Shown: positions 44,071-52,900 of the stretch, piece by piece
How the letters are laid out: each line of letters opens with the position of its first letter
Position numbering within the stretch: the stretch's first letter is position 1
Source: Acidobacteriota bacterium
GTDB taxonomy: Bacteria > Acidobacteriota > Terriglobia > Terriglobales > Acidobacteriaceae
Reading direction: 5' to 3'
NCBI GenBank assembly: GCA_003225175.1
Contig: QIBA01000047.1
Span: forward strand, 1 to 64,000
DNA length: 64,000 bases
Made by a program: the position numbers and the translations under genes
Notes under the pieces: model-generated
What the model was told of the DNA's origin: nothing
Database searches by the model: none
The model's input: only the letters and a program-made list of their open reading frames with translations

Positions 44071-44445
44071 CTACACGGCCCACAGGCTCTCGTCTTGATC
44101 GGAATGCAGTCCGCGATCCTCGCCCGTGATCCAGTCCTTGCGTTGAGGTGTACACACATCGATTGCGACGACGTCTTCCAGCACTTCGGACGAATGCTCA
44201 ACGCCGCGCGGGATCGTCAAGACCTGATTCGGAAGCAGCGTCACTGCGCCTGTCGGTAATTGGAAGCGCCAGGAGCCTTTGAGGAGGAAAATGACCTCTT
44301 CCTGGTCGTGGCAATGAGGTCTGGTTACCGATCCTTGTTTTGCCTCTAGTCGCGCGAGTGTCAGGCTCTCTCCAGTTGCTACCTTTCGCCGATATTCGCG
44401 TGTCAGATAGTCGGGACGCATCTTGTTCATGTCATAGACTGCCAT
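44071..44445 (-). CDS. Cupin-domain protein, last gene of the ilv operon
   Basis: A 124-residue single-domain cupin. Metal-binding motif 1 reads RPHCHDQEEVIFLLKG (His-x-His and Glu) and motif 2 is PRGVEHSSEV, with one His. It could bind a divalent metal and act as an isomerase, dioxygenase or sugar sensor, but the family is too broad to name an activity. The ATG at 44445 has AAGGA eight bases upstream and lies 13 bp after the ilvC stop codon, so it is almost certainly transcribed with ilvD-B-N-C. A link to branched-chain amino-acid metabolism is inferred from position only. Confidence 0.88.
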   Translation of the reverse strand: MAVYDMNKMRPDYLTREYRRKVATGESLTLARLEAKQGSVTRPHCHDQEEVIFLLKGSWRFQLPTGAVTLLPNQVLTIPRGVEHSSEVLEDVVAIDVCTPQRKDWITGEDRGLHSDQDESLWAV

Positions 44446-44458
44446 AATGGTTATCCTT

Positions 44459-45532
44459 CTAGACTGCTACCGCCTTTTTTTCATCCTTTGTTTCGGCTGG
44501 GCTTTCCGATCGATTCTCCATTTGATCGGGACCGATAGTCGTGGGATTGACGAACGGCATCATGGAACGCAACTTCGCTCCCACCTGCTCAATTAAGTGC
44601 TCGCGCTCGCGGCTGCGCACCTGATTGAACCAGGGCCGACCTTTTTCGTTCTCCGCAATCCACTCCCGTGCGAAGTCCCCACTGCGTACATCGGCGAGCA
44701 TTTGCCGCAGTGCCGCATAAGTCTCTTTTGTGACAACCTTCGGGCCGCCCGTGTAGTCGCCATATTCAGCCGTATCGCTTACTGAATAGCGCATAAAGTT
44801 GAGCCCGCCCCGGTACATGAGATCGACAATCAGCTTGAGCTCATGCATGCACTCAAAGTATGCGATCTCCGGCTGATATCCAGCTTCGACCAGCGTTTCG
44901 AATCCGGCTTTGATCAGAGCGCTCACGCCGCCGCACAGGACAGCCTGTTCGCCAAAAAGGTCCGTCTCTGTTTCCTCTGCAAAAGTCGTCTCGATGACCC
45001 CGGCGCGCGTGCAGCCGATGCCTTTTGCGTAGGAGAGAGCCAGAGCTTTGGCTTTGCCGCTGGCATCTTGATGCACAGCCAGGAGTCCAGGTGTTCCGCC
45101 GCCCTCTGCGAAGACTTCGCGCACACGGTGACCGGGCGATTTTGGCGCGATCATGATGACGTCGACGTTAGCTGGAGGCTCGATGGTCTTGAAGTGAATA
45201 TTGAACCCGTGTGCGAACAATAGCGTCTTGCCGGCCGACAGAGCAAGCGCGATAGCCTCCTGATAGAGCTTTGGCTGCACGGTATCGGGTACGAGGAGGA
45301 CCAAAATGTCGCCCCATGCAGCCGCGTCCTTTGGAACCAGCACCTCGAATCCGGCCTCGCGCGCCTTCGCTCGTGAACGGCTTTGGAGCTCCAGCGCTAT
45401 TCGGACTTGAACTCCACTGTCGCGAAGGTTCAACGCGTGTGCATGCCCCTGGGACCCATAGCCGAAGACCGCTACTTTCTTGCCTCTTATCAGTGCCAGA
45501 TCTGCCGAGTTTTCGTAGTAGATGTTTGCCAT
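44459..45532 (-). CDS. ilvC: Ketol-acid reductoisomerase
   Basis: A 357-residue class I enzyme that isomerises and reduces acetolactate or acetohydroxybutyrate to the dihydroxy acids of valine, leucine and isoleucine synthesis. The Rossmann motif is [20 protein letters not shown]; the NADPH loop has Ser/Arg residues (LQSRSRAKA). The knotted C-terminal domain has [31 protein letters not shown] and [12 protein letters not shown] with the metal-binding acids. An acidic/Lys tail ends the protein. AAAGGAAA upstream of the ATG at 45532. It follows ilvN by 15 bp. Confidence 0.97.
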
Positions 45533-46116: not shown

Positions 46117-47826
46117 TCATGCCTCCGATGCCGCGGTCTCGACGAGCGGACTCGGGCGGCGAATCATCTGGTGCAGAGCCGCTCCGCTGGGTACCATGGG
46201 AAATACCGAGTCTTCCTGTTCCACCATGAAATTGATTAGTGCAGTGCCTCGACGCTTTCGCGCTTCGCGAATCATTGGTCCAACCTGCTCTCGATTGCGC
46301 GCCGTGAGCCCCAGCAATCCGAACGCTTCGGCTAGTTTGGCGAAATCTGGACTGAGTAGGGGCGTTGCGGAATAGCGGCGGTCGTAGAAGAACTCCTGCC
46401 ACTGTCTCACCATGCCCAGATATCCGTTATTGATTACAGCGATATTCAGGTCAAGTTCCTCCTGCGCTGCTGTGGCCAGTTCCGCCATTGTCATTTGGAA
46501 TCCGCCGTCCCCTGCGACGACCCAAACTTCGGAGTCGGGGCGTGCGAACTTCGCGCCGATGGCTGCCGGTAATGCGAATCCCATTGTGCCGAGTCCGCCG
46601 GAAGTAATCAGTGAACGCGGCCGTTCGTGCTTATAATACTGGGCTTCCCACATCTGGTGCTGGCCTACATCCGTGACCACGATGGAATTGCCATCGGTCT
46701 CGCGCCACAGATCATGAATGACATGCGCGGCATAGAGATGACCATTATCGGGCAGCCTCTGAATATCGCGGACCGCAGAGTCTCCCTTGAGCCCATCCAG
46801 GTAATCGAGCCAGCTGTGCCGATCGGCGCGTGCTAAATCGGGAATGATTCGGGTAAGAACCTGGCGCAAGTCACCGAGCAGAGGGACGTCCACGCGAACA
46901 TTCTTGTTGACCTCCGCCGGATCGATCTCAACGTGAATCTTCTTAGCCTTCGGCGCGTATGTTTTGAGCGTGCCGGTTACGCGGTCATCGAAGCGCATGC
47001 CAAAGGCGAGGAGCAAATCCGCTTCCTGGATGGCGTGGTTTACCCATGCCTCTCCATGCATGCCCATCATTCCGAGATTGAGAGGATGCGAGGCAGGAAA
47101 GCCTCCGATACCGAGCAGCGTCATGGCAACCGGGATCGAGGCGCGCTCAGCGAACTCGCGGAGTTCGTCCATTGCGTTCGACAGCAGAACTCCGTGACCG
47201 GCGAGAATCACCGGACGCTTGGCTGCATTGATCATTGCAATCGCGGCGGCATGCTGATCAGAATCGAAGTTCTGTTTGCCCTCTGTTATTGGCAGGGGAG
47301 TGTAGGTGGAGCGGTCGAACTCGCAGGAAGACTGCTGCGCGTCCTTAGTGATATCCACCAGCACCGGACCGGGACGCCCACTGCGGGCCAGATGAAAAGC
47401 CGCACGCAGTGTAGGCGCGATATCTTCTGCTCGCTTGACGAGATAGTTATGTTTGGTGATCGGCAGAGTGATGCCAGTGATATCGGTTTCTTGAAATGCA
47501 TCGGTGCCAAGGAATTTGCTGCCTACCTGCCCGGTGATGCAAACGATCGGCGAGGAATCCATCATGGCAGTAGCGATTCCAGTCACCATATTGGTGGCGC
47601 CGGGACCGGATGTCGCTATTGCAACACCCACGTCGCCTCCAGCTCGCGCATATCCGTCTGCCATATGGGTAGCGCCTTGCTCGTGGCGAACGAGAACGTG
47701 GTGAATTTCCGGGTACCCACAAAGCGCGTCGTATGCAGGAAGGATCGCGCCGCCGGGATAGCCAAAGACGTGCTTCACTCCTTCTCCGATCAAGCACTCC
47801 CACAGGATTTGCGCACCGGTTCTCAT
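46117..47826 (-). CDS. ilvB: Acetolactate synthase large (catalytic) subunit
   Basis: A 569-residue ThDP-dependent enzyme making 2-acetolactate and 2-aceto-2-hydroxybutyrate, the first common step of branched-chain synthesis. The N-terminal domain begins with FGYPGGAILPAYDAL and has catalytic Glu49 in LVRHEQGATHMADGYA; the FAD-binding middle domain follows. The C-terminal ThDP motif is GDGGFQMTMAELATA through VINN. The ATG at 47826 is 20 bp after ilvD, and it overlaps or abuts ilvN, so the two subunits are made in step. Confidence 0.97.
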   Translation of the reverse strand: MRTGAQILWECLIGEGVKHVFGYPGGAILPAYDALCGYPEIHHVLVRHEQGATHMADGYARAGGDVGVAIATSGPGATNMVTGIATAMMDSSPIVCITGQVGSKFLGTDAFQETDITGITLPITKHNYLVKRAEDIAPTLRAAFHLARSGRPGPVLVDITKDAQQSSCEFDRSTYTPLPITEGKQNFDSDQHAAAIAMINAAKRPVILAGHGVLLSNAMDELREFAERASIPVAMTLLGIGGFPASHPLNLGMMGMHGEAWVNHAIQEADLLLAFGMRFDDRVTGTLKTYAPKAKKIHVEIDPAEVNKNVRVDVPLLGDLRQVLTRIIPDLARADRHSWLDYLDGLKGDSAVRDIQRLPDNGHLYAAHVIHDLWRETDGNSIVVTDVGQHQMWEAQYYKHERPRSLITSGGLGTMGFALPAAIGAKFARPDSEVWVVAGDGGFQMTMAELATAAQEELDLNIAVINNGYLGMVRQWQEFFYDRRYSATPLLSPDFAKLAEAFGLLGLTARNREQVGPMIREARKRRGTALINFMVEQEDSVFPMVPSGAALHQMIRRPSPLVETAASEA

Positions 47827-47846: not shown

Positions 47847-49517
47847 CTAAATCGTGACCGCGCCGCGCGAGGCCGACGATACCTGGTTTGCGTACTTCGC
47901 CATAACCCCAGTTCCATATCGGGGCTGAGGCGGCTTCCAGGATGCGAGCCGCTGTTTCAATTCCGAATTGGAAACATCCACGCGCAACTCGCGCTTCTTC
48001 AGATCGAATACGATCACATCGCCTTCACGCACTGCGGCTATGGGTCCGCCATTCATAGCTTCGGGAGCGACATGGCCAGCCATCAGCCCATGAGTGGCGC
48101 CGGAGAATCGTCCATCGGTGAGTAACGCGACCGAATCGCCGAGCCCTGCCCCCACAAGTGCTGCGGTAACGGCGAGCATCTCGCGCATACCCGGACCGCC
48201 CTTCGGTCCTTCGTAGCGAATCACGATTACATCGCCCGTCTTGATCCGGCCGCTCTGCACAGCAGCGAACGCCAGCTCTTCGCTGTCGAAGACGCGTGCT
48301 GGTCCTGCGTGATGTTGAAAATCGTGACCTGCGACTTTCAGCACACAGCCTTCCGGGGCGAGATTCCCTTTCAGAATCACGAGCCCGCCAGTCGGTTTGA
48401 GCGGATTGTCTGCGGGACGCACTACTTCCTGGTCGGGGGTTTCGACCGCGTTCTTCGCCTCTTCTCCGATCGACTTGCCTGTAACCGTTAGCGCGTCGGA
48501 ATGTAGCAGGCCGGCTGCCGCCAGCCGTTGAGCGACAAGCAGAGTTCCTCCTGCTTCAAACAGATCAGTAGCTACGAACCTGCCACCTGGCTTGAGGTCT
48601 GCAATAAGTGGAACGCGAGAACTGATGCGTTCAAAGTCATCGATTACAAACGGAACATCTGAGGTATGGGCAATCGCGAGCAGGTGAAGAACAGCATTCG
48701 TGGAGCCGCCGGTGGCTGCAACGCTGGCGACGGCGTTCTCGAAGGCTGCGCGGGTAAGAATCTGCTTCGGCAGACGTTGCCCGGCCACGAGTTCCATAAC
48801 GAGACAGCCTATTGCCTCCGCCTGGCGCATCTTCGATGGATGAGTCGCGGGAACGCCTCCGCTCCCCATCGCTGCGATTCCAAGAAACTCGCAGACCATG
48901 GCCATCGTGTTTGCGGTGAATTGACCGCCACACGCGCCGGCGCCAGGACAAGCCTTGTCCTCGATTTCCTTCAGATCCGAATCCGCCAGCTTGCCGCGGC
49001 TGTGAGCGCCGACCGCCTCAAAGACATCCTGAATGGTGACGTTCTTGCCGCGAAAAGATCCTGGAGCGATGGAACCACCATACAGAACGACTGATGGAAG
49101 ATTCAGTCTCGCGACCGCCATTACCGCGCCCGGAATGGTCTTGTCGCAGCCGACCAGGACCACGAGGCCGTCGAAGTGATTCCCGCGCGCTACCAGTTCA
49201 ATCGAGTCGGCGATAACCTCACGGCTCACAAGAGAGGTACGCATGCCCTCTGCGCCCATGGTGATACCGTCGGAGATGGAGACGGTATTGAACTCCATCG
49301 GAGTCCCGCCGGCTTCACGTACCCCGCGCTTAACCCCAGCGGCAAGCTCACGCAGATGATAGTTGCACGGACCAATTTCCGTCCAGGTATTCGCAACGCC
49401 AATAATGGGACGACGAAGGTCTTCGTCTGTGAATCCCACTGCCTTGAGCATGGCGCGCGCAGGAGCCCGGCTTGGTCCTTCGGTAATCGCCGCGCTGTTT
49501 CGTTTCCCCTGGTTCAT
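47847..49517 (-). CDS. ilvD: Dihydroxy-acid dehydratase
   Basis: A 556-residue iron-sulphur dehydratase that converts the dihydroxy acids to 2-keto acids. The cluster cysteines are Cys51 (IGPCNYHLRELA), the Cys of LVGCDKTIPGAVM and that of CPGAGACGGQFTANTMA. PEDMIA-type catalytic residues are in the C-terminal barrel (TDGRFSGATHGLMAGH). I chose the ATG at 49517, with GAGG seven bases upstream; a frame from 49559 would start inside the attenuator stem. It is the first gene of ilvD-ilvB-ilvN-ilvC-cupin, behind a leader peptide and attenuator. Confidence 0.96.
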   Translation of the reverse strand: MNQGKRNSAAITEGPSRAPARAMLKAVGFTDEDLRRPIIGVANTWTEIGPCNYHLRELAAGVKRGVREAGGTPMEFNTVSISDGITMGAEGMRTSLVSREVIADSIELVARGNHFDGLVVLVGCDKTIPGAVMAVARLNLPSVVLYGGSIAPGSFRGKNVTIQDVFEAVGAHSRGKLADSDLKEIEDKACPGAGACGGQFTANTMAMVCEFLGIAAMGSGGVPATHPSKMRQAEAIGCLVMELVAGQRLPKQILTRAAFENAVASVAATGGSTNAVLHLLAIAHTSDVPFVIDDFERISSRVPLIADLKPGGRFVATDLFEAGGTLLVAQRLAAAGLLHSDALTVTGKSIGEEAKNAVETPDQEVVRPADNPLKPTGGLVILKGNLAPEGCVLKVAGHDFQHHAGPARVFDSEELAFAAVQSGRIKTGDVIVIRYEGPKGGPGMREMLAVTAALVGAGLGDSVALLTDGRFSGATHGLMAGHVAPEAMNGGPIAAVREGDVIVFDLKKRELRVDVSNSELKQRLASWKPPQPRYGTGVMAKYANQVSSASRGAVTI

Positions 49518-49539
49518 TACAAAACCTCGAACTCTCCCT

Positions 49540-49607
49540 AAAACACTTGAGGCCATCATCCGCTGAATGATGGCCTCGAACTCTGTTGCTTCTTCAGGCC
49601 ATCATCC
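49540..49607 (-). promoter_or_regulatory. Transcription attenuator of the ilv operon (alternative hairpins)
   Basis: Read on the minus strand, three segments share one sequence. A: GGATGATGGCCT (49607-49596). B: GAGGCCATCATTC (49577-49565). C: GGATGATGGCCTC (49561-49549). A pairs with B (12 pairs, one G-U), and B pairs with C (13 pairs, one G-U, loop AGC). The two pairings exclude each other. B:C is followed by AAG then TGTTTT (49545-49540), an intrinsic-terminator-like arrangement with an imperfect U-tract. The leader-peptide stop codon lies inside A, so a ribosome that finishes the peptide would cover A and let B:C form. A ribosome stalled earlier on Leu/Val/Ile codons would leave A free to form the antiterminator A:B. 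Confidence 0.75.
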
Positions 49608-49664
49608 TGTTGCCATAAGCAAAAGGAGGAGTGTAAGCAGAGAAATTCGAACGACAGTAAGCAC
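49602..49664 (-). CDS. ilv operon leader peptide (Leu/Val/Ile-rich)
   Basis: A 20-codon frame starting at a GTG (49664), with the ribosome site AGTGAGG eight bases upstream (49679-49673). It reads M-LTVVRISLLTLLLLLMATG, then TGA. It holds eight Leu, two Val and one Ile, including five Leu codons in a row (CTC CTC CTT TTG CTT), just before the attenuator. The same frame is open from an ATG at 49721 (39 residues), close to the predicted transcript start, but that ATG has no ribosome site. Composition and position match known ilv leader peptides (for example ilvL of enteric bacteria), whose translation senses charged branched-chain tRNAs. It is too short for ordinary gene callers. Confidence 0.7.
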   Translation of the reverse strand: MLTVVRISLLTLLLLLMATG

Positions 49665-49750
49665 AGACAAAACCTCACTTCCACGGAACCCTAAACCATT
49701 TGTGCTTACGCTGAAATTCATGGAGACATCTACCCGCTCAATGGATTGGA

Positions 49751-49779
49751 ACTATAAATGTCGCTTATGAAGAAGTCAA
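49751..49779 (-). promoter_or_regulatory. Promoter of the ilv operon
   Basis: On the minus strand TTGACT (49779-49774), a 17-base spacer and TATAGT (49756-49751): five of six matches in each box with ideal spacing. Transcription would begin near 49745, giving a leader of about 228 bases before ilvD. Confidence 0.8.
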
Positions 49780-49848
49780 CAATATAAGCGGAACCTCCTG
49801 CCCGAGCTGCTCATCGACTTTCCTGATGCGCACTATCTGAAGTTTCGA

Positions 49849-49876
49849 TTGGAACCCAGAACCGGCTGCCTATACA
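49849..49876 (+). promoter_or_regulatory. Predicted promoter of gltB
   Basis: TTGGAA (49849-49854), a 16-base spacer and TATACA (49871-49876), 58 bp before the gltB GTG. It is back to back with the ilv promoter about 70 bp away. Confidence 0.45.
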
Positions 49877-49934
49877 CCTGAACAGTAAGCTAGGGCGCAG
49901 TGTCCCCTGTGAAATTTCTGATAAGGCGGCAGAT

Positions 49935-52900
49935 GTGCAGCAAGGCTTGTACGATCCCCGGTTTGAACACGACTCCTGCGGTGCAGGTTTCATTACGCGA
50001 GTCTCCGCCGTGCCCTCCTTCGAAGTGCTCCAGATGGGATTGGAAGCTCTCTCGCGTCTAGCGCATCGAGGCGCGATTGCAGCCGATGGACGGAGTGGAG
50101 ACGGAGCCGGCATTACCGCATGCCTGCCGCAAGAATTGTTTAGGGCGTTTCTACGCGAATGCGGTTTGCGAATCGGCGGTACTCAACCCCTTGCTGCGGG
50201 AATGATCTTTGCCAATCTGGACGAACTTGCCGTTAGCGACGAGATTCTCCGTTCCGCTTTGGAACAGGAGCAACTGAGTTTGCTCTGCTGGCGTGACGTG
50301 CCGGTCAATGAAGAAGCGCTTGGAGCGACCGCGCTCGCTTCTATGCCTGTCATCCGACAGGCCCTGATCACTCCGCTGGTTGCGATGCAGATTAACGAGC
50401 TGGAAGCCCGGTTATATCGTGCGCGCAAGATATTCGAACGAGCAAACCTAAATTCCTACATCGCCTCACTGTCGGCTAAGACGATTGTCTACAAGGCACT
50501 CTGTACGGGAGCCCACCTACGCGAGTTCTATCTCGACCTACAGGATGCTAATTTTGAGACCGCCTTCGTAGTTTTCCATCAGCGTTACGCGACCAATACA
50601 CATCCTTCGTGGTGGCTGGCGCAGCCATTTCGCCTGCTCGCTCACAACGGAGAGATCAATACTATCGGCGCCAATCGCACTTGGATGAAGGCGCGCGAAA
50701 ATCAACTTCCACCGCACTGCCTGCCGATGCTGCGGGAAGGCGGCTCGGATTCCTGTCACTTGGACGAAACTGCCGAAATGTTAGTGCGAGGCGGACGCGA
50801 CGTGCTGCACAGCATCGCGATGCTGGTTGTGCCTGCATGGCAGGCCCATCCTGCGTTTCAGGATCTCGCTGGCTTCTATCGCGAGCATGCTTCGATGATG
50901 GAACCATGGGATGGTCCTGCAGCCTTGGCGTTTACCGACGGTCGCTATGTTGGCGCCGCCCTTGATCGGAATGGCCTTCGTCCGATGCGCTACGCCATCA
51001 CGAATGACAATGTGGTCGTTGCTGGATCAGAAGTCGGTCTGTTTGACTTGGACGATCAATGCGTCTGCGTGAAAGGCCGTCTTGGTCCGGGGCAGATGCT
51101 GGCAATTGATCTGGAAGAGCACTCGGTTCTCGAAGCGGAGGGAATCAAGCAGCATCTTCTGAAGCAAAGCCCAAAGCGGAACTCACGGTTGTTGAGTGTG
51201 CCGGCGGTCTCAGCACGGATTGAGCCGATTGCGAACGAGCGCTTGCAATCCTTATTCGGCTTTACGCGCGAAGATCTCAAGCTGGTCATCAGCCCCATGG
51301 CGCGCGAGGGTAAAGAAGCGGTCTGGTCTATGGGCGACGACACGCCGATTTCTGCTCTCGCGCGTGTTCCCAGATCGTCTTATAGCTACTTTCGACAGCG
51401 GTTCGCACAAGTCACTAACCCGCCGATTGATCCATTGCGGGAAGACCTGATGATGTCTCTTCGCACCCTGCTAGGCCGCAGGCCATCGTGCTGCGACGAT
51501 GATGAATCAGTTGCGACGCTGTTGAACTTTGCCTCGCCGGTGCTTAGTGAGTCTGAACTTCAGGGCATTCGCGTTCAGCCGCTCGTCAAGGCCACTGAGC
51601 TGCAATGCACGTCCCCGGCGCTCGCCAGTTTGGAGCAGTCCCTCGACGAACTTTGCCGTAAGGCAGAGCGTGCGGTGGCGGAAGGCACTGAATTACTCAT
51701 TCTGTCTGATCGGAATGCAAGTCCGGGAGATCTGCCGATTCCGATGGCGCTTGCTGTCGGTGCCGTGCACCATTGCCTGATTAAGGCCAGCCTACGCATG
51801 AGTTGCGACTTGGTTGCTGACAGCGGCGATGTTTGGGACGTTCATCACGCGGCCGTGCTGATCGGTTATGGCGCCGGAGCGATGTGTCCATGGCTGGCGC
51901 TTCGGAGCTGCGAGTCTCCGCAGAAATTGCTGGAAGCGTTAGCCAACGGCTTGAAGAAGGTGATGTCCAAATTGGGCATTTCCGATGTAGCGAGTTATCG
52001 CGGTGGACAGTTCTTTCAAACCATCGGTTTCGATGAGCGGATCGCGCAAAAATGCTTCACAGGCACTCCGAACCTGCTGGGCAAGATCAGTTTCGAGACA
52101 ATTCAGCAGGAGCTTATCCGCCGCGCTCAGCTAGACGACAGGCACGAGGCCGAACTCAACATCCTGCAGGATTACGGCTCAATCCGGTATCGCAAATCCG
52201 ACCACGCCGACCAGCACGGATGGGCTCCGCCAGTCGTGCGCGCGATGCAGACCGCCGTAGGCGTAGCTCGCGGCAAATCGGAACTTACGTCAAGCGAAAC
52301 CGCGTGGAACGGCTTCCTGAATCAGACTGATTCGCTTAAGCCCCACAATCTTCGCGATCTGCTCGAGTTCGCTCCTGGGACTACTCCGATGTCGATTGAG
52401 GAGATCGAACCAGCAGCTAAAATCGCGCGCCGCTTCGTCACGAGCGCGATGTCTCTGGGTTCGATCAGTCCCGAAGCGCATCGCACTTTGTCTCAGGCAA
52501 TGAACCTGCTCGGAGGCAAGTCAAATACGGGCGAAGGCGGGGAGGATCCGGAGATTTATCGCATCCAGCCCGACGCGAACAACAAGGTCAAGCAAGTGGC
52601 ATCAGGCCGCTTTGGAGTCACCGCCGAGTACCTGGTGCAGGCTGAAGAACTGGAGATCAAGATCGCCCAAGGTTCGAAGCCCGGAGAAGGGGGACAGCTT
52701 CCTGCCGCCAAGGTGACTGAACTCATCGCCCGATTGCGCCATGCACAACTGGGAATGTCGTTGATCAGCCCTCCCCCACATCACGACATTTACAGCATCG
52801 AGGACCTGGCCCAGCTGATTCACGACCTGAAGCAAGTGAATCCCAAGGCTCGCGTCGGCGTGAAGCTGGTGTCTGAAGCGGGCATCGGAACTGTAGCTTC

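What the first reader, a model, noticed from the sequence alone, without database searches (positions are those of the whole stretch)
49540..49779. Unannotated leader peptide and three-segment attenuator controlling the ilv operon
Seen: a near-consensus promoter (TTGACT-17-TATAGT), a short frame with a ribosome site encoding M-LTVVRISLLTLLLLLMATG, its TGA inside segment A, and segments A, B and C that form either A:B (12 bp) or B:C (13 bp, followed by TGTTTT). Known: enteric ilvL/leu leaders work this way, with stalled ribosomes selecting the antiterminator. Inference: transcription of ilvD-B-N-C-cupin is tuned by charged Leu (and Val/Ile) tRNA. I know of no description of ribosome-mediated ilv attenuation in Acidobacteriota. 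The weak U-tract and the promoter-proximal ATG without a ribosome site are the weak points.
Basis: partly seen in the sequence, partly recalled or inferred. Interest (0 to 1): 0.82.

Follow-up and report, generated by a model that had tools for sequence, protein, structure and literature searches.

The report
Leader-peptide attenuator family in Acidobacteriota
A short leucine-rich leader frame followed by three alternative RNA segments sits in front of a branched-chain amino acid operon, and the same arrangement recurs across the phylum Acidobacteriota with leader codons that match the pathway behind it, so these bacteria very probably tune amino acid synthesis by ribosome-mediated transcription attenuation.

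Summary
Promoter, 39-codon frame with its TGA inside segment A, A:B (12 bp) and B:C (13 bp, weak U-tract) are in the sequence. A covariance model built without the window's genus still ranks the locus first in the 5.73 Mb genome (E 5.5e-7). A DNA pattern with no peptide information matched 42 stretches in one genome each of 84,980 species. Four seem to lie inside genes; of the other 38, 36 are named as Acidobacteriota, and 28 of the 38 have an Ile/Leu/Val-rich frame, against 2 of 111 open control frames. In 162 loci leaders fit the gene behind them: Ile/Leu/Val-rich for branched-chain genes in 76 of 90, Thr-rich for aspartokinase/homoserine dehydrogenase in 18 of 21, Cys-rich for cysteine genes in 3 of 3. 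A pairs better with its own B than with swapped ones (0 of 5000 permutations). No Rfam match at any site tested. Best reading: classic ribosome-mediated attenuation, a family I found undescribed for this phylum in the library searched. Translation, stalling and termination are inferred; no RNA data were available.

The parts
49763..49789 (-). Inverted repeat GCTTAT-N15-ATAAGC around the -35 box, candidate operator
   Evidence: Half-sites kept while the spacer varies in the five genus members read; exact match here and at one other place in the genome, at the start of a glycosyltransferase-like gene (by reading), with one control match; CTTAT-N15-ATAAGC at the leuA promoter. Function inferred.
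49751..49779 (-). Promoter TTGACT-17-TATAGT
   Evidence: Consensus scan, 10 of 12 matches, 0.6 expected
49602..49721 (-). Leader frame, 39 codons plus TGA: MNFSVSTNGLGFRGSEVLSVLTVVRISLLTLLLLLMATG
   Evidence: Translation; frame kept in relatives. The start codon is uncertain (ATG 49721, or a TTG/GTG nearer the stop).
49596..49607 (-). Segment A, GGATGATGGCCT, contains the leader stop codon; 5' strand of the antiterminator
   Evidence: Inverted repeat I2; fold with C masked; own-versus-swapped pairing on 70 sequences
49565..49577 (-). Segment B, GAGGCCATCATTC, shared by antiterminator and terminator
49549..49561 (-). Segment C, GGATGATGGCCTC, 3' strand of the terminator
   Evidence: changes on both sides in 7 of 13 pairs
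49540..49548 (-). Terminator tail AAGTGTTTT, weak here
   Evidence: Sequence; a number of relatives have longer T-runs
47847..49517 (-). ilvD, dihydroxy-acid dehydratase, first gene of the operon; start ATG 49517 with GAGG seven bases before it
   Evidence: Pfam ILVD_EDD_N and ILV_EDD_C; start chosen by reading against relatives
46117..47826 (-). ilvB, acetolactate synthase large subunit
   Evidence: ORF; Pfam TPP_enzyme N, M and C; likeness to L081, which matches TIGR00118
45548..46402 (-). Frame that holds ilvN, acetolactate synthase small subunit; the true start lies inside it
   Evidence: ORF; Pfam ALS_ss_C and ACT_AHAS_ss over residues 103-253 of the frame
44459..45532 (-). ilvC, ketol-acid reductoisomerase
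   Evidence: ORF; Pfam KARI_N and KARI_C
44071..44445 (-). Cupin-domain gene at the end of the operon
   Evidence: ORF; Pfam Cupin_2, E 1.4e-6

Best explanation
It is a ribosome-mediated transcription attenuator of the ilvD-B-N-C-cupin operon. RNA polymerase starts at the promoter and a ribosome translates the 39-codon leader. When charged Leu (and Val/Ile) tRNA is plentiful the ribosome reaches the TGA, which lies inside segment A, and covers A; B then pairs with C and transcription stops before ilvD. When charged tRNA is short the ribosome stalls in the Leu/Val/Ile run upstream of A; A pairs with B as soon as B is made, C stays free, and polymerase reads into the operon. Shown here: the anatomy, its conservation, covariation of the terminator, complementarity of A to its own B, and the match between leader codons and pathway. 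Inferred: translation, stalling, termination, the kinetic advantage of A:B, and the sign of the response.
For: Anatomy. The model without the window's genus ranks this locus first in its genome, E 5.5e-7; the next independent place has E 0.80. Pattern scan: 28 of 38 loci judged to lie outside genes have 7 or more Ile/Leu/Val in 15 codons in the frame that the pattern fixes, against 3 and 0 of 38 in the other two frames, 2 of 111 open control frames and 6 of all 229 control sites. Leader and gene match across 162 loci (Fisher p 2e-14 for Thr, 3e-8 for Ile/Leu/Val, related genomes not removed). After crude clustering of similar peptides 36 of 43 branched-chain and 15 of 18 Thr-pathway clusters still fit. 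A:B own -19.74 against -16.37 kcal/mol swapped, 0 of 5000 permutations; in the 26 loci with divergent B -19.52 against -15.05, 0 of 5000. B:C: 93.0% of cells paired, 7 of 13 pairs changed on both sides. Of the 70 full-length R1 hits read, all 35 with E up to 8.4e-5 have an amino acid gene within 1.5 kb downstream.
Against: The U-tract is weak in the window. The whole leader is not unusually stable. With the ribosome on the last Leu codon the plain energy model still prefers B:C. Column-wise, A:B shows 70.6% of cells paired and 3 pairs changed on both sides, no more than shuffles (3.1), because the register shifts. In one search, 40 of 500 shuffles reach 7 doubly changed B:C pairs. Codon changes in the leaders are mostly not synonymous (191 of 280 in 11 leuA leaders, 20 of 27 in three genus members), so translation is not proved by codon bias. 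The start codon is unsettled. leuA in the same genome has no such leader. 318 of 396 phylum genomes had no R2 hit at E 0.001. 6 of 21 Thr-pathway leaders are also Ile/Leu/Val-rich, and 3 gltB leaders are unexplained. No RNA or translation data.
Confidence: 0.9

Rival explanations
1. The frame encodes a small hydrophobic membrane protein with its own terminator, and the operon is fed by read-through; the Leu run is a transmembrane helix, not a sensor.
For: 39 residues with a Leu/Val/Ile-rich stretch; hairpin with T's behind it.
Against: Leaders before threonine genes are Thr-rich and before cysteine genes Cys-rich, with the same segments. Outside the leuA group the peptide diverges while A, B and C stay recognisable. 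The stop codon lies in A in many loci.
Confidence: 0.03
2. The segments act on translation of ilvD (hiding its ribosome site) rather than on transcription.
For: The U-tract is weak in the window and the ilvD ATG lies 32 nt from the end of C.
Against: The ilvD ribosome site GAGG (49528-49525) lies 20 bases beyond C, outside all three segments; it was not part of the segment folded. A number of relatives have long T-runs right after C.
Confidence: 0.04
3. A protein or metabolite, not a ribosome, chooses between A:B and B:C (riboswitch or RNA-binding regulator).
For: Conserved letters GGATGATG / GGCCATCATCC / GGATGATGGCC in different operons could be a binding site.
Against: No Rfam family matches. 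The change of leader codons with the pathway is not explained.
Confidence: 0.02
4. A chance hairpin and chance frame.
For: In the window alone a terminator-like site is expected 0.7 times per 561 bases and the fold z-score is -0.67.
Against: Conservation across the phylum and the model built without the genus.
Confidence: 0.01

Closest known systems
Enterobacterial thr/ilv/leu leader attenuators (thrL, ilvL, ivbL, leuL; recalled, not read here)
   Same: Leader peptide rich in the codons of the pathway's amino acids; competing antiterminator and terminator; same gene sets (thr, ilv, leu)
   Different: Here the antiterminator strand A contains the leader stop codon and the model needs no protector hairpin; one consensus cassette recurs before branched-chain, Thr and Cys genes; no Rfam family matches
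Corynebacterium ilvB-II motif, with ilvB-OMG and Leptospira ilvB motifs (PMC10272879; passages and section 14 read)
   Same: Uncharged-tRNA sensing proposed through a BCAA-rich uORF before ilvB, with terminator and antiterminator; the authors suggest wider use of attenuation in other lineages
   Different: There the putative antiterminator uses the right shoulder of the terminator stem, here the 5' strand B; there described before ilvB, here before ilvD, ilvB, ilvN, ilvA, leuA, citramalate synthase, aspartokinase, homoserine dehydrogenase and cysteine genes. Whether ilvB-OMG ('various bacterial phyla') includes Acidobacteriota is not said in the section read.
Actinobacterial trp, ilvB and cys leaders (PMC1262725; abstract and passages read)
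   Same: Candidate classical attenuators with complementary triples for trp; BCAA leaders with terminators before ilvB; Cys-run leaders before cys operons
   Different: By that paper the cys leaders lack obvious terminators and the mode of the ilvB leaders is unclear; here Cys-rich leaders carry the A/B/C set (L210, L233, L247)
S. aureus ilv leucine-rich attenuator peptide (PMC5794164; title and start of abstract in a listing)
   Same: Leucine-rich attenuator peptide acting on BCAA synthesis
   Different: Other phylum; details not read

Membership tests
Ribosome-mediated (classic) transcription attenuator | Short leader frame rich in codons of the regulated pathway's amino acid | tested here: met
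Ribosome-mediated (classic) transcription attenuator | Intrinsic-terminator-like hairpin between leader and first gene, conserved as a structure | tested here: met
   the U-tract is weak in the window
Ribosome-mediated (classic) transcription attenuator | Mutually exclusive antiterminator whose complementarity is kept | tested here: met
   Own-versus-swapped pairing and fold under masking; the column-wise count is no better than shuffles for doubly changed pairs
Ribosome-mediated (classic) transcription attenuator | Position lets a terminating ribosome cover the antiterminator strand and a stalled one leave it free | tested here: inconclusive
   Stop codon inside A. With the last Leu codon in the A site the mask reaches only the first bases of A, but the minimum-energy fold still prefers B:C, so the switch must be kinetic.
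Ribosome-mediated (classic) transcription attenuator | Leader is translated | tested here: inconclusive
   Frame kept open (37 of 38). In 11 leuA leaders compared gap-free over 20 codons the third codon position varies most (191 against 88 and 146), but 191 of 280 codon changes alter the residue; in three genus members 20 of 27 do. No translation data.
Ribosome-mediated (classic) transcription attenuator | Premature termination relieved by amino acid shortage | not testable with these tools
   No RNA-seq or reporter data
Rfam families (release 15) | Match to a covariance model | tested here: not met
   Window 48000-51500, E up to 5: 0 matches; 20 loci at gathering score: only a tRNA; 12 loci, E up to 0.1: 0 matches
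T-box | Match to a T-box model upstream of the operon | tested here: not met
   No family matched; that T-box models are in the library is recalled

The most novel reading that the evidence does not exclude
One homologous, portable attenuator cassette (GGATGATG / GGCCATCATCC / GGATGATGGCC with the leader stop inside the first segment) spread through the Acidobacteriota, and only the control codons in front of it were rewritten to Leu/Ile/Val, Thr or Cys as it came to stand before different operons, so that an amino acid sensor is retargeted by changing a dozen codons.
Probability: 0.4. Interest if true: 0.75.

Novelty: new member of a known kind. Interest (0 to 1): 0.6.

Why it matters
Acidobacteriota are very common soil bacteria whose gene regulation is little known (recalled). 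[quoted passage not shown] Here a large set gets one: a readable sensor whose codons state the amino acid, usable to annotate operons of unknown function, such as the small gene behind the Leu-rich leaders in L181, L182, L195 and L214. It also extends ribosome-mediated attenuation, including a Cys version with a terminator, to another phylum and makes it testable whether attenuators are inherited, transferred or reinvented.

Tried and rejected
Looking only upstream of ilvD: of 62 genomes with a match (own genome included), 61 upstream regions were read (G056 ends at a contig edge). Only a minority showed a leader. Many other ilvD genes follow what I read as leuD or another gene closely, so their leader, if any, would lie elsewhere. 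Hence the change to a structure model and a DNA pattern.

A single MAFFT alignment for A:B failed for register shifts and was replaced by the own-versus-swapped duplex test. That test does not remove relatedness, so 0 of 5000 is not a strict probability.

Weak R1 hits: of 70 full-length hits read (overlapping antisense and partial matches were not read), 35 have E up to 8.4e-5 and all 35 have an amino acid gene behind them; of the 35 weaker ones 11 do by tblastn, 12 with L116 classed by reading. The rest look like plain terminators. Pattern loci L138, L143, L148 and L157, which by my reading lie inside genes, were set aside before the 28-of-38 count. 18 same-contig or identical duplicates were dropped before the 162. 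Not all hits were fetched; 68 loci of that search, mostly E up to 1e-5, were read. The three cysteine loci were classed after reading because my reference set held no cysteine gene; Pfam and NCBIfam then supported them. In L233 the cysteine synthase frame is the second gene, behind an unnamed one.

Ten of 38 pattern loci fall short of 7 in the pattern's frame: L139, L162, L165, L175 seem to use a stop further on in another frame; L144, L158 are Thr-rich; L142 is Cys-rich; L154 has 6; L164 and L176 (gltB) are unexplained. Fourteen of 90 branched-chain loci have no Ile/Leu/Val-rich first frame by my rule; some have one in another frame or only a few Ile codons, and L097 and L126 (ilvA) show none. 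Of 34 loci without a recognised gene, 17 have a frame and 9 of these are Ile/Leu/Val-rich.

An operator regulon search in the own genome gave two places for GCTTAT-N15-ATAAGC and one control match, too few to claim a regulon.

Full report
What was claimed.

Check of the observation. All parts are present. The promoter is TTGACT-17-TATAGT at 49779-49751. The frame from ATG 49721 to TGA 49604-49602 reads MNFSVSTNGLGFRGSEVLSVLTVVRISLLTLLLLLMATG. A is 49607-49596, B 49577-49565, C 49561-49549, followed by AAGTGTTTT. With C masked the RNA folds as A:B; with a ribosome on the stop codon it folds as the 13-bp B:C hairpin at -22.2 kcal/mol. Taken alone this is not beyond chance: the whole leader has z -0.67, and one terminator-like and one promoter-like site were expected 0.7 and 0.6 times. 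No Rfam family matches. The operon genes behind it are supported by Pfam: ilvD, ilvB, ilvN, ilvC and a cupin.

Which organism. Genome G004, of the same genus as the window, has a 46,329-base contig with the attenuator that record QIBC01000001.1, also 46,329 bases, 'Acidobacteria bacterium isolate gp1 AA112', shows.

Relatives. IlvD was found in 62 of 81 genomes, the own one included. Upstream of ilvD the four other genus members with a match (a fifth, G005, had none), and G042, G031, G020, G026 and G067 from other genera, carry a leader and segments that look alike. Their B:C helix keeps pairing through changes (93.8% of cells).

A family, not one site. Model R1, built from these ten, hit 74 of 300 genomes of the window's family at E 0.01. 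Of 70 full-length hits read, the 35 with E up to 8.4e-5 all have an amino acid gene within 1.5 kb downstream; of the 35 weaker ones 11 do, or 12 with one classed by reading. Model R2 (70 sequences) hit 78 of 396 genomes drawn from the phylum at E 0.001, in many families. A model without any sequence of the window's genus, R3 (46 sequences), still ranks the window locus first in its own genome, E 5.5e-7 against 0.80 for the next independent place.

DNA-pattern test. The pattern GGATGAN{15,45}GCCATCATYCN{3,14}GATGATGGC, which says nothing about codons before the stop, was run over one genome for each of 84,980 species: 42 stretches. Thirty-six records bear names of Acidobacteriota or of groups that belong to it (recalled: Terriglobia, Sulfotelmatobacter, Vicinamibacterales, Blastocatellia). 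Of the six others, four seem to lie inside genes, one named Acidimicrobiia (L175) is identical at the site to a genome that the genome collection places in the window's phylum (L183), and one is a Woeseiaceae MAG (L165) with a Thr/Ile-rich leader before homoserine dehydrogenase. In the 38 outside genes the frame that ends at the pattern's TGA holds 7 or more Ile/Leu/Val in 15 codons in 28 and is open for 20 codons in 37; the other two frames reach 7 in 3 and 0. Of 229 other GGATGA sites in the same loci 6 reach 7; of the 111 that are open for 20 codons 2 do.

The leader names the pathway. After dropping 18 duplicates, 162 loci from the three searches were classed by the gene behind them (families confirmed on representatives; L116 and the cysteine loci were classed by reading), and the leader taken by a rule blind to composition (first stop at offset 5-26 that closes 15 codons or more). 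Branched-chain genes (ilvD, ilvB, ilvA, ilvN, leuA, citramalate synthase and relatives): 76 of 90 have 6 or more Ile/Leu/Val in 15 (84 of the 90 have a frame by the rule). Aspartokinase and homoserine dehydrogenase: 18 of 21 have 4 or more Thr in 15, against 3 of the 84 branched-chain leaders; 6 of the 21 are Ile/Leu/Val-rich as well. Cysteine genes: 3 of 3 have 4 or more Cys in 15, for example CPICSCCC before a siroheme synthase gene (L210) and CACPCCCPACC before a cysteine synthase gene (L247). pheA: 5 of 6 leaders are Ile/Leu/Val-rich, and pheA is followed by ilvD or ilvB in 4 of 6. LysR genes 3 of 3, cupin-like genes 2 of 2. gltB: 0 of 3, unexplained. Thirty-four loci have no recognised gene (17 with a frame, 9 of them Ile/Leu/Val-rich). 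The association survives crude clustering of similar peptides (36 of 43 and 15 of 18).

Both helices are kept. B:C: 93.0% of cells paired in 70 sequences, 7 of 13 pairs with changes on both sides (40 of 500 shuffles reach 7), covariation score 0.268 against 0.144 in shuffles, 0 of 500 as high. A:B: the register shifts between loci, so column counts are poor. Pairing each A with its own B gives -19.74 kcal/mol on average, with other B's -16.37; no permutation of 5000 reached the observed sum. For the 26 loci whose B departs from the consensus the figures are -19.52 and -15.05. For example ilvA loci with B CACCCGC have A GCGGGTG. Relatedness is not removed by this test.

How it most likely works. 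The stop codon lies in A. A ribosome that finishes the leader covers A and lets B:C form; one held at the Leu/Val/Ile codons leaves A free. In the plain energy model the full-length RNA prefers B:C even then, so A:B must win by being made first: with the transcript ending at 49557 A:B is the best fold (-21.2). That step is inferred, as are translation, termination and the direction of the response. Codon changes in the leaders are mostly not synonymous, which fits a peptide whose sequence matters little, but does not prove translation.

What was corrected. The GTG start is GTC in a near relative; an in-frame ATG near the promoter is kept in three of the five genus members, and the other two have a GTG at about that place.

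Second layer. Around the -35 box lies GCTTAT-N15-ATAAGC, whose arms are kept in the five genus members. In the genome it occurs at one other place, at the start of a glycosyltransferase-like gene, with one control match. The form CTTAT-N15-ATAAGC with TTG close behind occurs once, at the leuA promoter, where a LysR-type gene lies divergently (Pfam) and there is no leader. So ilvD may be under both a regulator and attenuation; this is a lead. The same genome has a second candidate attenuator, before aspartokinase, with leader MNSRRITMSMTTTGTIMSTARPAEGDI (L208; R2 E 3.6e-5; Pfam AA_kinase); R1 and R3 did not find it.

Known or new. The mechanism is classic. Literature, in an open-access library only: attenuation + leader peptide + Acidobacteria gave three papers, of which passages of two were read (PMC4833913, PMC2965389) and the third, on EF-P, was not opened; the same with Acidobacteriota gave none; Acidobacteria + ilvD + leader + terminator none; ribosome-mediated + attenuation + Acidobacteri none. 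A wider search gave 46 papers, 15 listed, none with such a title; in PMC2864571 the only Acidobacteria motifs in the passages shown, Acido-1 and Acido-Lenti-1, are marked as not cis-regulatory. [quoted passage not shown] PMC10272879 section 14 suggests uORF attenuation for ilvB-OMG motifs 'from various bacterial phyla'; I could not check whether Acidobacteriota are among them. Lopatovskaya 2010 is not held. So I file it as a new family of a known kind, in a phylum where I found no description, with the shared cassette across pathways as its most unusual trait.

Noticed in passing
window 49763-49789: Inverted repeat GCTTAT-N15-ATAAGC over the ilvD -35 box, arms kept in five genus members; similar element at the genome's leuA promoter beside a divergent LysR-type gene (L250).
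   Followed up: partly
L208:320-490 (G000:C43:28791-28875): Second candidate attenuator in the window's own genome, before aspartokinase, with a Thr/Met/Ile-rich leader.
   Followed up: partly
L210, L233, L247: Cys-rich leaders with A/B/C segments ahead of siroheme synthase (L210) and cysteine synthase genes (first gene in L247, second in L233).
   Followed up: partly
L164, L176, L191, L236: The same segments before gltB (glutamate synthase) with leaders that are neither clearly Glu/Gln- nor BCAA-rich; the sensed amino acid is unclear (L176 and L191 are the same site). gltB is also the divergent neighbour of ilvD in the window.
   Followed up: no
L181, L182, L195, L214: Leu-rich leaders with the segments before a family of small proteins (73-99 aa in the frames read); L182's has no Pfam match.
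   Followed up: partly
L180, L185, L197: Val/Leu/Ile-rich attenuators before LysR-type regulator genes (Pfam), so a regulator itself seems to be attenuated.
   Followed up: partly
window 44071-44445; L207, L227: A small cupin gene ends the ilv operon in the window, and genes similar to it (tblastn; L207 has no Pfam match) come first behind Leu-rich leaders elsewhere.
   Followed up: partly
leuA leaders, e.g. L082, L084, L179: In the 12 leuA leaders listed most codons of the stretch GCC CTT ... GTG GCC ATT ... GGC CTG GTG CTT GCA are identical down to the third base, which hints at a further pairing or function inside the frame.
   Followed up: partly
L192, L212: Strong model hits before genes that read like MFS transporters, whose leaders show no obvious control codons.
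   Followed up: no
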